Shown here piece after piece: positions 1 through 58,722 of a stretch of DNA of 64,000 nt (the stretch's first letter is position 1; each line of letters starts with the position of its first letter). The position numbers and the translations under genes were made by a program. The stretch is taken from NCBI GenBank assembly GCA_014896455.1, contig JADBKJ010000024.1, forward strand, positions 1-64,000, in the 5' to 3' direction. The notes under the pieces are model-generated. The model was not told where the DNA came from. It saw nothing but the letters and a program-made list of their open reading frames with translations, and ran no database searches. This DNA is from Thermoanaerobacter sp. (GTDB taxonomy: Bacteria > Bacillota > Thermoanaerobacteria > Thermoanaerobacterales > Thermoanaerobacteraceae).

Positions 1-51
1 AGTCGCTCCGATTGCAAAATATCTCCTTTACGAAAGTTTGTCTACAGTCTG
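1..51 (+). repeat. Foldback (MITE-like) element, right end only
   Basis: These bases match the right end of the roughly 265-bp repeat found complete at 14979-15243, including GATTGCAAAATATCTCCTTT and the terminal GTTTGTCTACAGTCTG. The rest of the element lies before the window. A stem-loop follows immediately, as at the other copies. Confidence 0.85.
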
Positions 52-14939: not shown

Positions 14940-14974
14940 TACAAAAATAAAAATACCGGAAATAATCCGGTATT
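14940..14974 (-). terminator. Terminator left of the foldback element
   Basis: On the minus strand AATACCGGA pairs perfectly with TCCGGTATT and is followed by TTTATTTTTG. It would end transcripts from the amylase and lipoprotein-stump region before the DUF2229 gene. Confidence 0.85.
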
Positions 14975-14978
14975 TTCG

Positions 14979-15243
14979 CAGTTTGTTGACAAAGTTAAAA
15001 AATATTCAAAGGAGATATTTTGCATCGTCGCTCCGATGTTCCAAAGCGACAAAACTAAAGCTCGACCTTCGGGCTCCGGCAGGGTACCGGGCACAATCGG
15101 CCTCCTTGCCTCAGGTGCCCGCCTTCGCCATCCATGGCTTCGGCCCTGCCTCCACCCTCAGTCTCGCTAAGTTTTGTTACCGCTTTGTAACAAGTCGCAC
15201 CGATTGCAAAATATCTCCTTTGCGAAAGTTTGTCTACAGTCTG
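14979..15243 (+). repeat. Foldback (MITE-like) element, complete copy 1
   Basis: This 265-bp element is visibly richer in G and C than its surroundings. Its ends, CAGTTTGTTGACAAAGTT and (reverse complement of the right end) CAGACTGTAGACAAACTTTC, are imperfect inverted repeats. The similarity continues inwards for about 85 bp on each side (AAAGGAGATATTTTGCA, then AAAGCG..ACAAAACT). There is no transposase and no convincing gene. It sits between two different stem-loops, at 14952-14974 and 15244-15266. Confidence 0.9.
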
Positions 15244-15354
15244 AGAGAGTATACGAAATACTCTCTTTTTGCTGCCGCCACAACCTGTTAAAGCAGCTGA
15301 CAAAACGAATACCATCACAGTCAGCAATGCAATTATTTTTGTGTACTTCTTCAT
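15244..15354 (-). pseudogene. Lipoprotein gene stump: signal peptide only
   Basis: A strong AGGAGG site precedes an ATG at 15354 and a textbook lipoprotein signal: MKKYTK, a hydrophobic run, then the lipobox SAALTGCGGSKK. Right after the two lysines the sequence turns into a stem-loop (15244-15266) and then the foldback element, so the mature protein is missing. Its position after a secreted amylase suggests it was the binding protein of a sugar or maltodextrin importer, but nothing of that domain remains. Loss probably came with insertion of, or recombination at, the repeat. Confidence 0.8.
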
Positions 15355-26263: not shown

Positions 26264-26288
26264 AAAAAACACAGGACTTCTCCTGTGT
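26264..26288 (-). terminator. Terminator hairpin beside foldback copy 2
   Basis: ACACAGGA pairs with TCCTGTGT across CTTC and on the minus strand runs into TTTTTTATG. It lies immediately next to the repeat element and upstream of the thioesterase promoter. Confidence 0.75.
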
Positions 26289-26289
26289 A

Positions 26290-26551
26290 GAGTTTGTTGG
26301 CAAAGTTAAAAAACATTCAAAGGAGATATTTTGCATCGTCGCTCCGATGTTCCAAAGCGACAAAACTAAACTCGACTTTCAGGTTCCGGCAGGGTACCCC
26401 GTCAGGCGACGTCCTGTCTCAGGTGCCCGCCTCCGCCCTCCTTGGCTTCGGCCCTGCCTCCACCCTCAGTCTCGCTAAGTTTTGTTACCGCTTTGTCACA
26501 AGTCGCTCCGATTGCAAAATATCTCCTTTACGAAAGTTTGTCTACAGTCTG
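26290..26551 (+). repeat. Foldback (MITE-like) element, complete copy 2
   Basis: This copy is in the same orientation as that at 14979 and strongly similar over the whole length. The middle (around 26396-26420) differs, which is where the two arms meet. TCCTGTGTAG occurs directly before it (26281-26290) and again shortly after it (26565-26574), followed by a second element-end-like ACTGTTGACAAACTG. Confidence 0.9.
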
Positions 26552-26590
26552 CGGCAGGCTAATATCCTGTGTAGACTGTTGACAAACTGT

Positions 26591-38121: not shown

Positions 38122-38147
38122 AAGCATTGATATTTCATTCAATGCTT
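38122..38147. repeat. Hairpin direct repeat, left copy
   Basis: AAGCATTGA pairs with TCAATGCTT, and the 26-bp unit occurs again at 38412-38437 with one base changed. The two copies bracket the foldback element exactly. The stretch 37995-38121 after azoR holds no gene I can support. Confidence 0.9.
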
Positions 38148-38411
38148 CAGACTGTAGACAAACTTTCGAAAATAGGATATTTTGCAATCGGTGCGACTTG
38201 TGACAAAGCGGCAACAAAACTTAGCGAGACCGAGGGTGGAGGCAGGGCCGTAGCCAAGGAGGGCGGAGGCGGGCACCTGAGGCAAGGAGGCCGATTGTGC
38301 CCGGTACCCTGCCGGAACCCGAAGGTCGAGTTTAGTTTTGTCGCTTTGGAACATCGGAGTAACGATGCAAAATATCCTATTTTAAAATTTTTTGACTTTG
38401 TCAACAAACTG
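38148..38411 (-). repeat. Foldback (MITE-like) element, complete copy 3
   Basis: This 264-bp copy is inverted relative to those at 14979 and 26290. It begins CAGACTGTAGACAAACTTTC and ends TTTGTCAACAAACTG. It is bordered on both sides by the same 26-bp hairpin, giving the clearest view of its limits. Confidence 0.92.
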
Positions 38412-45735: not shown

Positions 45736-45935
45736 TACAGGCAGGTCTCCTGACTTAGGTTCATCGCTCTTTACGCCTTCCCACCTTTCAAACATCGGGG
45801 ACGGTTCCTTTTGTTTGAACAGACAGTGGCATATTGTAAAGAGCTCACCATCACAGTGGCGGGACCGTGCAGGGTTCTCACCTGCTTCCCTTTTAACCCA
45901 ATTTCCCTTTGAAATTGGGCACCTGTATCTGTGTA
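45736..45935 (-). ncRNA. Cobalamin (B12) riboswitch
   Basis: Read on the minus strand, the conserved blocks occur in order: ACAGGTGCC, GGGAAGCAGGTGAGAACCCT, CCCGCCACTGTGA, GCCACTG, GGTGGGAAGGC, GAACC, and the closing GTCAGGAGACCTGCCTG. These are the hallmarks of the AdoCbl riboswitch. It lies in the nrdD leader. A 33-bp REP-like palindrome occupies the loop of a peripheral stem, between GCCACTG and GGGAAGGC. Confidence 0.93.
45787..45819 (+). repeat. REP-like 33-bp palindrome inside the riboswitch
   Basis: TTCAAACA and TGTTTGAA form the arms around a core GGGGACGGTTCCT. The unit has the same length and core as those at 46687 and 46722. Confidence 0.85.
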
Positions 45936-46056: not shown

Positions 46057-46205
46057 CAGACTATAGACAAACTTTCAAAAATAGGATATTTTGCAATCGG
46101 TGCGACTTGTGACAAAGTGGCCCGGCACTCAAGTAAGAAAGTTTATAAAGCAAAATAGAAAAACAAGCATACTTACTTGAGTGCCGGGAAACTTAGCAAG
46201 ACCGA
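46057..46205 (-). repeat. Foldback (MITE-like) element, truncated copy 4
   Basis: The first half of the element (CAGACTATAGACAAACTTTC onward, matching the copy at 38148) is present but ends after AAACTTAGCAAGACCGA. A 68-bp palindromic insert interrupts it at 46121. The opposite arm is gone, so this copy is decayed. Confidence 0.85.
46121..46188. repeat. 68-bp palindromic insertion in the repeat
   Basis: Perfect 17-base inverted repeats (CCCGGCACTCAAGTAAG and its complement) enclose a 34-base AT-rich centre. Compared with the intact element, it replaces about 5 bases (CAACA). It has no coding capacity and looks like a second, very small mobile unit. Confidence 0.8.
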
Positions 46206-46686: not shown

Positions 46687-46719
46687 TTCAGACGGGAGGG
46701 ACGGTTCCTCCTGTCTGAA
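46687..46719 (+). repeat. REP-like 33-bp palindrome
   Basis: TTCAGAC and GTCTGAA arms surround GGGAGGGACGGTTCCTCC. It forms an inverted pair with the unit 2 bp away. Confidence 0.88.
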
Positions 46720-46721
46720 AA

Positions 46722-46754
46722 CTCAGACGGAAGGAACCGTCCCCTTTGTCTGAG
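46722..46754 (-). repeat. REP-like 33-bp palindrome, inverted partner
   Basis: CTCAGAC and GTCTGAG arms surround AAGGAACCGTCCCC, the same core on the other strand. The pair lies between the ABC ATPase gene and trmO and could act as a transcription terminator. Confidence 0.88.
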
Positions 46755-50189: not shown

Positions 50190-50284
50190 GGGAGTAGATA
50201 GGCGCTGGTGTGCCTCCTAGACTTCAAATCTACGGTCTCGCTATTTACGCGAGAGGTGGGTTCGATTCCCACATACTCCCGCCA
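50190..50284 (+). tRNA. selC: Selenocysteine tRNA (anticodon UCA)
   Basis: This 95-base gene folds as an unusually long tRNA with acceptor strands GGGAGTA and TACTCCC, anticodon TCA in GACTTCAAATC, a long variable arm (GGTCTCGC...GCGAGAG) and the T loop GGTTCGATTCC. It ends GCCA, so CCA is encoded. It decodes the UGA codons in grdA, grdB and selD. It points against selB and meets it at a shared hairpin. Confidence 0.97.
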
Positions 50285-57423: not shown

Positions 57424-58722
57424 TTATTCAAAAACAGTTTGCCCTTCTATATCTGTTTCTAAAGCTTTTAGAGCCTTTTCTACTAATTTTTTCCTTAAAG
57501 CGTATTCCTCTTTAGGCCCAAGTGAAGGATTGCCCAAAGGATGTGGTATAGCCACTGCTGGCACAATCCTATTCGCACCTACTGTCTTGGAGATTGGAAC
57601 TATGGTGCAAACGTGAACTGTCGGTATACCGGCCCTTTCCAACTCTTTTACCATCGTTGCACCGCAACGAGTACAGGTTCCTCAGGTAGAGGTTAGAATA
57701 ACAGCCTGCACTTTGTCTTCAAGCAATTCCTTAGCAATATTTTGAGCAAATCTTCTCGCATTAGCTACTGAAGTGCCATTCCCAACAGTAGCATAGTAGT
57801 AGTTATAAAGCTTGCCAATCTTGCCCTCCCTTTCTAACTCCCTTAAAGCGTCAACCGGAAGCACCCTGTCAGGGTCTTCATTGGCGTATACAGGGTCATA
57901 TCCTCCATGAGCCGTTTCATGAGTTTCGCTAGTTAAATTATCTATTCCTTCTATACTGTATTTGCCGTACTTAGAAGCACTGGAAGATTCTATGTGGTCT
58001 GGATTGCCTTTGGGCACTATTCCGCCTGAAGTGACGAGTGCGATCAGGGCCTCTTTGACATTTACAGCTTTAGCGGGAGGAACTCTGTCAAAATCAGGCA
58101 TAGGATATTCCGTGGTAAAAGGCTCTCCTTTTAACTTTTTGATGAGCATTTCTACAGCCCTTTTAGAAGCCCTTTCTTCAACAAAGATGTTTTTTCTTAT
58201 TCCTCTTGGAATATATCCCTCTTCTTCAGGCGCACCTATGGGCTCCTTAAAACCTAACTTCAAAGCTAAACTTGCCATTTTAGAAACTGCATTTTTCATT
58301 CCTGCTGCCGAATCAGTAGTTTTTATGATGTACACATGCTTCTTATATAGGTCAACTCCTGGGTTTTCAGGATACATTCCAGTAACCGCAGGAATTCCAA
58401 ACTTATCCTGAACAGCTTTGCAGATGGTGCCACAAGCTGTTCCATACCTTCCCGCATTAAAAGCAGGACCAGCTATGAAAACATCAGGCTTATATCTTTC
58501 AATCATCTGTAGAATCTCTTGTGTAGCCTTTTCAATGTTTTCATTAAAATAGCTGTCTCCACAAATTACTGTTGCTACAATCTCTGCTTTATCACCAAAA
58601 GAACCTTTAAAAGCCATTCCCGGACCTACCGGTCCTTCTTTCACCATGGGCGGAATTGAAGCTTTGTCCTCTCCTCCAATTTGACCAAAAAACTGATTTA
58701 AATAATGGACAACCCTTAACAA
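57424..58722 (-). CDS. grdB: Glycine reductase component B, selenoprotein GrdB
   Basis: GrdB is the substrate-specific subunit that binds glycine as a Schiff base partner of GrdE and transfers its methyl-carboxyl unit to GrdA. One continuous frame of 432 residues is interrupted only by a TGA at 57682-57684. This is read as selenocysteine 347 in TSTUGTCTRCGATM, the known GrdB active site. A SECIS hairpin with a GGT loop follows 12 bases later. It would be mis-called as two separate genes. It lies between grdA and grdC; sarcosine or betaine homologues are excluded only by context (glycine riboswitch). Confidence 0.95.
57655..57669 (-). promoter_or_regulatory. SECIS hairpin of grdB
   Basis: On the minus strand CGTTGC pairs with GCAACG across a GGT loop, starting 12 bases after the UGA. 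Spacing and loop fit bacterial SECIS elements. Confidence 0.75.

What the first reader, a model, noticed from the sequence alone, without database searches (positions are those of the whole stretch)
14979..15243. A foldback element family that always sits beside stem-loops
Five copies or fragments occur in 64 kb (1-51, 14979-15243, 26290-26551, 38148-38411, 46057-46205). Their ends are imperfect inverted repeats that continue for about 85 bp per arm, and the base composition is visibly richer in G and C than the surroundings. There is no transposase. The three complete copies and the edge fragment directly touch hairpins, several with terminator features. That points either to a mobile element whose transposase, acting from elsewhere, targets terminator-like hairpins, or to a structured RNA insulated by hairpins.
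Basis: partly seen in the sequence, partly recalled or inferred. Interest (0 to 1): 0.8.

Follow-up and report, generated by a model that had tools for sequence, protein, structure and literature searches.

The report
Terminator-targeting mini-transposon with RNA-like core
The repeats look like small non-coding mobile elements, apparently moved by an enzyme encoded in related genomes, that insert at the hairpins ending bacterial genes and duplicate the whole hairpin; their folded core is related to a known candidate RNA family, which suggests that this family can be part of mobile DNA.

Summary
The repeat is a ~264-bp MITE of the Thermoanaerobacter group (99 left-end matches in this genome). 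Both its unlike ends match a 1.57-kb IS1182-family insertion sequence in sister genomes; only degraded transposase pieces were found here. The hairpins are not part of the element. They are the target site, duplicated whole (16-33 bp, centred on the dyad). In complete sister genomes 46 of 56 copies have hairpins on both sides (5 of 671 control positions). All 8 sites tested have a single-hairpin empty site elsewhere. The IS uses the same targets (12 of 14 loci with typical ends). The characterised relative IS1272 instead deletes its target hairpin. Unexpectedly, the core is a divergent homologue of the Rfam TwoAYGGAY RNA (E 7.6e-5 genome-wide, below the gathering score; reciprocal model hits; strong covariation). 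In print that RNA is predicted to bind CsrA; GGA stands in both loops in 63 of 78 and 53 of 56 MITE copies. In three genomes of two other families TwoAYGGAY sequences also have similar ends and hairpin flanks. Two window copies sit at probable assembly chimeras, so the hairpin at 15244-15266 is probably not native.

The parts
1..51 (-). left-end fragment of a MITE copy, cut by the start of contig C17
53..73 (.). hairpin AATACACT-loop-AGTGTATT next to the edge fragment (probably the duplicated target)
   Evidence: sequence
14951..14975 (.). native target hairpin AAATACCGGAAATAATCCGGTATTT of MITE copy 1; present once, without an element, in G001, G002, G006, G007, G009 (one base differs in G002 and G007) and twice around elements in G004, G005, G008
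14979..15243 (-). MITE copy 1, full length 265 bp
15244..15266 (.). hairpin that probably does not belong here: the same flank piece occurs at 19 MITE loci of this assembly; in G001 and G006 it is the target of one site (L139, L153)
26270..26287 (.). native target hairpin CACAGGACTTCTCCTGTG of copy 2; empty in G006 and G008, twice around a MITE in G002 and G004
26290..26551 (-). MITE copy 2
26552..26589 (.). probably chimeric right flank of copy 2 with a remnant element end; relatives have 1.1-3.8 kb between the two flanks
38122..38147 (.). target-site duplication, left copy, AAGCATTGATATTTCATTCAATGCTT
38148..38411 (+). MITE copy 3, full length 264 bp, best intact reference; apparently the same insertion is in G008 (L163)
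38155..38183 (+). inward promoter-like site TAGACA-17-TATTTT at the left end (consensus match only)
38197..38355 (+). core homologous to TwoAYGGAY RNA (RF01731), aligned over the full model 1-168
   Evidence: 27.7 bits in L001
38412..38437 (.). target-site duplication, right copy, AAGCATTGATATTTCACTCAATGCTT
46057..46205 (+). truncated MITE of the subtype with a nested foldback; the orthologous terminator is empty in G001, G004 and G008
46121..46188 (.). nested 68-bp foldback CCCGGCACTCAAGTAAG...CTTACTTGAGTGCCGGG

Best explanation
The repeats are non-autonomous elements (a MITE family) moved in trans by an IS1182-family transposase. Shown: both unlike ends match those of a 1.57-kb IS; MITE and IS sit at the same kind of site, in one case the same terminator in different genomes; the target is a palindromic stem-loop, usually at a gene's 3' end; and in most copies the whole stem-loop is duplicated, with breaks symmetric about the dyad. 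Inferred: the transposase reads the dyad (probably an extruded cruciform), joins element ends at the 5' feet of the stem on both strands, and gap repair copies the hairpin. The host gene thus keeps its terminator, which would explain why about 100 insertions are tolerated. Inside the element is a conserved branched fold homologous to TwoAYGGAY RNA. Whether it acts as RNA, perhaps started from the inward promoter-like site and ended by the duplicated terminator, or as a DNA structure is not settled.
For: Genome-wide copies. Ends of the IS equal ends of the MITE; the transposase is IS1182 by NF033551, 496 bits against a cut-off of 270. Hairpins on both sides in 46 of 56 copies against 5 of 671 controls; direct repeats in 44 of 56, median 24 bp. 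Dyad offset 0 in 57 of 70 and within 0.5 bp in 66 of 70 duplications, lengths 16-33 bp (dyads were sought within 6 bp of the middle). Empty single-hairpin sites for 8 of 8 sites tested and for window sites 1, 2 and 4. IS loci with both typical ends and duplicated hairpins: 12 of 14, by eye. One terminator carries a MITE in G000 and the IS in G008, and is interrupted in G005, where an element copy lies in the gap. A gene ends towards 52 of 55 sister-genome copies (open-frame heuristic). A second transposase lineage in G008 is not at hairpins, 0 of 5 by eye.
Against: Transposition was not observed. The window's genome holds only degraded transposase pieces, so current mobility there is unproven; the assembly is 90% complete. 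The MITE shares only about 20-29 bp with the IS at each end, so it is not a simple internal deletion of it. Two of 14 IS loci (L052, L070), and three more T. wiegelii copies with one diverged end (L287-L289, unlike hairpins on the two sides), lack the duplication; so do 12 of 56 sister-genome MITE copies and 36 of 77 G000 copies (19 of 58 when the 19 shared-flank loci are left out). At the place of copy 2, G003 has a divergent element between two unlike hairpins.
Confidence: 0.93

Rival explanations
1. A fixed structured-RNA gene family insulated by terminators, not mobile.
For: The core is homologous to TwoAYGGAY RNA and shows strong covariation; an inward promoter-like site is present in 69 of 78 and 50 of 56 copies; terminators flank it.
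Against: Orthologous empty sites, duplicated targets, opposite orientations at one site, an IS with the same ends.
Confidence: 0.03
2. Stem-loop-replacing insertion as described for IS1272/TnSha1: the target hairpin is deleted.
For: Same transposase family and same kind of target (PMC5678879: abstract, sections 22-24 and part 1 of the Discussion seen; PMC4923244: passages seen). Copies without a duplication exist.
Against: Most filled sites carry two copies of the hairpin and empty sites one.
Confidence: 0.03
3. The transposase is recruited by terminating RNA polymerase (or the RNA hairpin) rather than by the DNA palindrome.
For: Most sites are at gene 3' ends; the sequence after the duplication is mostly T-rich.
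Against: The breaks are symmetric about the DNA dyad, and some duplicated palindromes are followed by few T (15 of 70 have at most two T in the next six bases).
Confidence: 0.15
4. The flanking hairpins are an assembly artefact.
For: The same flank pieces recur at 19 G000 loci, window copy 1 included.
Against: Four single-contig sister genomes show duplicated hairpins at unrelated sites.
Confidence: 0.02

Closest known systems
IS1182-family insertion sequences, IS1272 and TnSha1 of staphylococci (PMC5678879, PMC4923244)
   Same: Transposase family; target is a stem-loop, often a terminator, without sequence consensus; repeated independent hits of one terminator in both orientations.
   Different: IS1272/TnSha1 are reported to delete the stem-loop without target duplication. 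Here the whole stem-loop is duplicated, which PMC5678879 draws only as a possible pathway (Fig 13 b). That ISfinder lists long variable direct repeats for IS1182 members is recalled, not checked.
Bacterial MITEs (review PMC10969869, passages seen)
   Same: Short, no transposase, terminal repeats shared with an IS, many intergenic copies.
   Different: The target is a palindrome duplicated whole; GC-rich core with its own conserved fold.
TwoAYGGAY RNA, Rfam RF01731 (PMC2864571, PMC11701678, PMC4333381, PMC7657543, PMC11661157; passages seen)
   Same: Core aligns over the full model; same branched fold; GGA in both terminal loops of most copies; reciprocal covariance-model hits.
   Different: Scores below the gathering score in Thermoanaerobacter; strict AYGGAY in the second loop in none of 78 G000 copies. 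The passages seen name no mobile context; PMC4333381 predicts that it sequesters the regulator CsrA.
SPRITE/BOX/RUP repeats of pneumococcus (from PMC10969869 passages)
   Same: Intergenic repeats, some terminator-like.
   Different: Here the terminator belongs to the host and is the target, not the element.

Membership tests
MITE | short, no transposase gene, terminal inverted repeats, dispersed copies | tested here: met
   median 263-265 bp, 99 left-end matches, ends
MITE | ends shared with an autonomous IS | tested here: met
   both ends of the 1.56-1.57-kb IS
MITE | target-site duplication | tested here: met
   44 of 56 sister-genome copies; empty sites
IS1182 family (the putative mobiliser) | transposase above the NF033551 cut-off | tested here: met
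   496 bits, cut-off 270, for L060 of G006; none over the cut-off in G000
IS1182 family (the putative mobiliser) | transposase actually mobilises the MITE | not testable with these tools
   needs a transposition assay
IS1272-type stem-loop-replacing insertion | target is a stem-loop | tested here: met
IS1272-type stem-loop-replacing insertion | target stem-loop deleted, no duplication | tested here: not met
TwoAYGGAY RNA (RF01731) | score at or above the gathering score of 43 bits | tested here: not met
   best listed for this genus 40.1 (G005) and 39.5 (G000); sister genus g2 42.7 (G012) (six candidates scored per genome). Met in other genomes such as G153 (63.8)
TwoAYGGAY RNA (RF01731) | homologous fold and position | tested here: met
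   E 7.6e-5 genome-wide; reciprocal model hits 31 of 60 at E<=1e-3, 37 of 60 at E<=1, 23 of 60 not found; 34 of 36 pairs change on both sides
TwoAYGGAY RNA (RF01731) | AYGGAY in both terminal loops | tested here: inconclusive
   strict in 18 of 56 sister-genome copies and 0 of 78 G000 copies; GGA in both loops in 53 of 56 and 63 of 78, and in 37 of 37 aligned relatives
TwoAYGGAY RNA (RF01731) | acts as RNA | tested here: inconclusive
   G.U 29, A.C 20, other mismatches 101; core helices alone 9 against 2; MITE alignment 64 against 43 over both predicted structures, 51 against 21 and 21 against 26 for either alone

The most novel reading that the evidence does not exclude
TwoAYGGAY, a candidate RNA since 2010 and predicted in PMC4333381 to bind CsrA through GGA loops, is the core of a widespread class of non-autonomous mobile elements. 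In several clostridial lineages these have IS1182-type ends and insert at terminators, duplicating them, so that each copy gains a ready-made terminator. A genome would then hold some 100 mobile, self-terminated decoys for a global regulator. I cannot exclude that the core instead acts as folded DNA in transposition.
Probability: 0.35. Interest if true: 0.85.

Novelty: new variant of a known kind. Interest (0 to 1): 0.67.

Why it matters
It documents, with empty sites and many independent duplications, an insertion mode in which elements of the IS1182 group duplicate an entire hairpin with breaks centred on the dyad, the opposite outcome to the deletion reported for IS1272, and so gives a natural data set on how a transposase reads DNA structure. 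It suggests how about 100 insertions can sit at gene ends without destroying termination. It gives a candidate RNA class (predicted, not shown, to bind CsrA) a mobile context that makes its function testable. It is also a caution for draft genomes: such repeats seem to create false joins.

Tried and rejected
Known RNA at gathering thresholds: no match in the elements of the window. Hairpins as fixed element parts: rejected (sites differ; empty sites keep one). IS1272-like replacement: rejected for most copies. A second transposase lineage of G008 (NF033551 164 bits, below cut-off) as mobiliser: its ends differ and it is not at hairpins, five copies judged by eye. The MITE as an internal deletion of the IS: rejected, only the terminal 20-29 bp are shared. 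MITE in phages: no match; in plasmids: one 74%-identical partial match, to the core, in an unannotated record named Klebsiella pneumoniae plasmid, possibly a contaminant (inference). Defence-system models: no match for the transposase. Whether these genomes encode CsrA was not tested. Papers: none holds Thermoanaerobacter, MITE and transposase together (0 papers); other searches are. Of the listed papers I opened those named in this report only. Absence claims are limited to those searches of an open-access library; supplements could not be read.

Full report
Observation. A search of the whole assembly gives 99 left-end matches (74 exact; reversed control 0) and, with the full element as query, 48 alignments of which 40 are nearly full length, only 40 of 124 first-look candidates being scored. 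The element is present in 10 of 10 genomes of the genus examined and, as single weaker matches, in 3 of 10 genomes of other genera of the family. No call names the window's own species.

The hairpins. In four single-contig sister genomes I fetched 60 copies; 56 could be delimited. Stems of at least 6 pairs touching the junction occur on both sides in 46 of 56 and on at least one side in 56 of 56, against 5 of 671 control positions with both; in the window's genome 62 of 77, 76 of 77 and 15 of 2660. The controls are positions in neighbouring DNA, mostly genes, so they do not tell how common hairpins are at gene ends in general; the duplications and empty sites do not depend on them. In 44 of 56 and 41 of 77 the two flanks are direct repeats of one another, median 24 and 23 bp. 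Without the 19 G000 loci that share one flank piece it is 39 of 58. For the 70 duplications with at most one mismatch, the centre lies exactly on the dyad in 57 and within half a base in 66; length varies from 16 to 33 bp and correlates moderately (r 0.54) with the span of the stem-loop; 55 of 70 start with A and 58 of 70 end with T.

Empty sites. For 8 sites chosen for clean duplications I joined the flanks with one hairpin copy and searched the genus. All 8 have a full-length match in another genome, the best being 96-100% identical. The orthologue of window copy 1 carries one hairpin and no element in G001, G002, G006, G007 and G009. In G005 an element lies there in the opposite orientation, flanked by the perfect 25-bp hairpin twice. 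In G004 and G008 elements lie in the window's orientation with the hairpin twice. Copy 2 has the duplicated hairpin in G002 and G004 and is empty in G006 and G008; copy 4 is empty in G001, G004 and G008. So the hairpins were there first and insertion duplicates them.

The mobiliser. A search for PF13751 in the genus found intact 1.57-kb IS copies in sister genomes. Their ends, CAGACTGTTGACAAA... and CAGTTTGTTGACAAAG..., are the two unlike ends of the MITE. The protein is an IS1182-family transposase by NF033551 (496 bits, cut-off 270) with DUF772 and DDE domains. By eye, 12 of 14 distinct IS loci with both typical ends have a palindromic duplication; L052 and L070 do not, nor do three T. wiegelii copies with one diverged end, L287-L289. 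One terminator carries a MITE in G000 (L026) and the IS in G008 (L077); in G005 it is interrupted and an element copy lies in the gap. Five copies of a second, more distant transposase in G008 are not at hairpins. An IS with a 51%-identical transposase in an uncultured Bacilli assembly is also flanked by a duplicated 23-bp hairpin (L296). In G000 only degraded transposase pieces were found. A gene ends towards the element on at least one side in 52 of 55 sister-genome copies and 70 of 75 G000 copies, by an open-frame heuristic.

The core. The core recurs in a sister genus (handle g2, unnamed) and in one plasmid record with other arms, which led to a permissive Rfam scan. TwoAYGGAY (RF01731) aligns over its full length to the core: 40.6 and 40.3 bits in genus g2, 27.7 in the window copy 38148-38411, 30.6 in L172; the gathering score is 43. 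In whole-genome terms E is 7.6e-5 in G000; four of the six G000 matches are listed and all four lie inside MITE copies. Over 398 genomes drawn from the phylum, 51 have matches at E<=0.001, 33 over the cut-off, and 0 of 14 control genomes do; six candidates were scored per genome. A covariance model from 21 cores (16 MITEs of this genus, 2 of G003, 2 of genus g2, 1 plasmid record) finds 37 of 60 RF01731 loci from other genomes at E<=1, 31 of them at E<=1e-3; 23 of 60 are missed, among them all five of G153. On those matches 34 of 36 pairs change on both sides; 90.1% of cells pair, against 53.5% in shuffles and at most 39.7% for slid structures. That alignment was fitted to the structure, so it leans towards it.

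Mobile context of TwoAYGGAY members elsewhere. From the positive genomes I took 13 that had several listed matches (59 loci; so chosen for being multi-copy). In all 13 the copies share a repeat, and in 12 of 13 at least two copies share it for 12 nt or more beyond the model on both sides; G252 is the exception. In G153 (matches over the gathering score) 4 of 5 copies have the end CAGACTGTAGACAAA exactly, and all five have similar hairpins on the two sides by eye, less cleanly in L389 and L391. G286 copies begin with CAGACTGAAGACAAA or one mismatch from it and have left hairpins in 5 of 5, with clear duplications in two. In G263 two of three copies lie between similar hairpins. In the other ten genomes I saw no such ends. 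Mobility and transposases of these genomes were not tested.

RNA or DNA? An inward promoter-like TAGACA-17-TATTTT (near variants allowed) lies at the left end in 69 of 78 and 50 of 56 copies, reading into the TwoAYGGAY strand; it is a consensus match only. GGA stands in both hairpin loops in 63 of 78 and 53 of 56 MITE copies and in 37 of 37 aligned relatives, as expected for the CsrA binding predicted in PMC4333381. G.U pairs are few (29 of 1126 standard pairs) and not clearly commoner than A.C (20); in the core helices alone 9 against 2; in the MITE alignment 64 against 43. This does not settle the question.

Literature. PMC5678879 (abstract, sections 22-24 and part 1 of the Discussion) and PMC4923244 (passages) describe IS1272/TnSha1 insertion into stem-loops, often terminators, with deletion and no duplication; the first draws whole-hairpin duplication as a hypothetical pathway. 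PMC2864571 (passages) lists TwoAYGGAY as a probable RNA, probably not cis-regulatory, in human gut, gamma-proteobacteria and Clostridiales. PMC4333381 (passages) predicts CsrA-binding sRNAs for it; PMC11701678, PMC7657543 and PMC11661157 (passages) concern its structure. PMC10969869 and PMC3196728 were seen as passages. None of these passages links TwoAYGGAY to mobile elements; the searches were (9 papers hold the term, 7 listed, 5 opened).

Judgement. The element is a MITE, a new variant of a known kind through its target mode and its core. It is not filed as a TwoAYGGAY member, since the gathering score is not met, but as a divergent homologue.

Noticed in passing
window 15244-15268 and 26552-26589; also L010-L012, L014, L016-L020, L022, L023, L028, L029, L088, L098, L102, L110, L112, L132: Probable assembly chimeras: pieces of the flanks of one MITE site (in place in L139 and L153) recur with varying length at 19 MITE loci. 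Relatives have 3.0-4.7 kb (6.3 kb in G001) between the flanks of copy 1 and 1.1-3.8 kb between those of copy 2.
   Followed up: partly
window 46121-46188; L319, L327 and others: A second foldback with 17-bp arms CCCGGCACTCAAGTAAG nested in a MITE subtype; matches in 8 of 10 genus genomes.
   Followed up: partly
L296: An IS1182-like IS from an uncultured Bacilli assembly with a 51%-identical transposase and a duplicated 23-bp hairpin: the target mode seems wider than this genus.
   Followed up: no
L187, L191, L287-L289: In T. wiegelii (G009) several MITE and IS copies share one flank with a fixed hairpin (GGAGCTGAATAATTATTTTATTCAGC), as if another repeat were joined to their end.
   Followed up: no
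L343 (NZ_CP061968.1): A TwoAYGGAY-like core with long inverted-repeat arms in a record named Klebsiella pneumoniae plasmid without annotation; possibly a contaminant.
   Followed up: partly
window 45787-45826, 46687-46753: Palindromic repeats with GGGACGGTTCC-type arms form a separate repeat family, one of them within the cobalamin riboswitch match.
   Followed up: no
window 57644-57681, 50190-50280: A SECIS_4 element and a tRNA-Sec gene: selenocysteine use in this genome.
   Followed up: no
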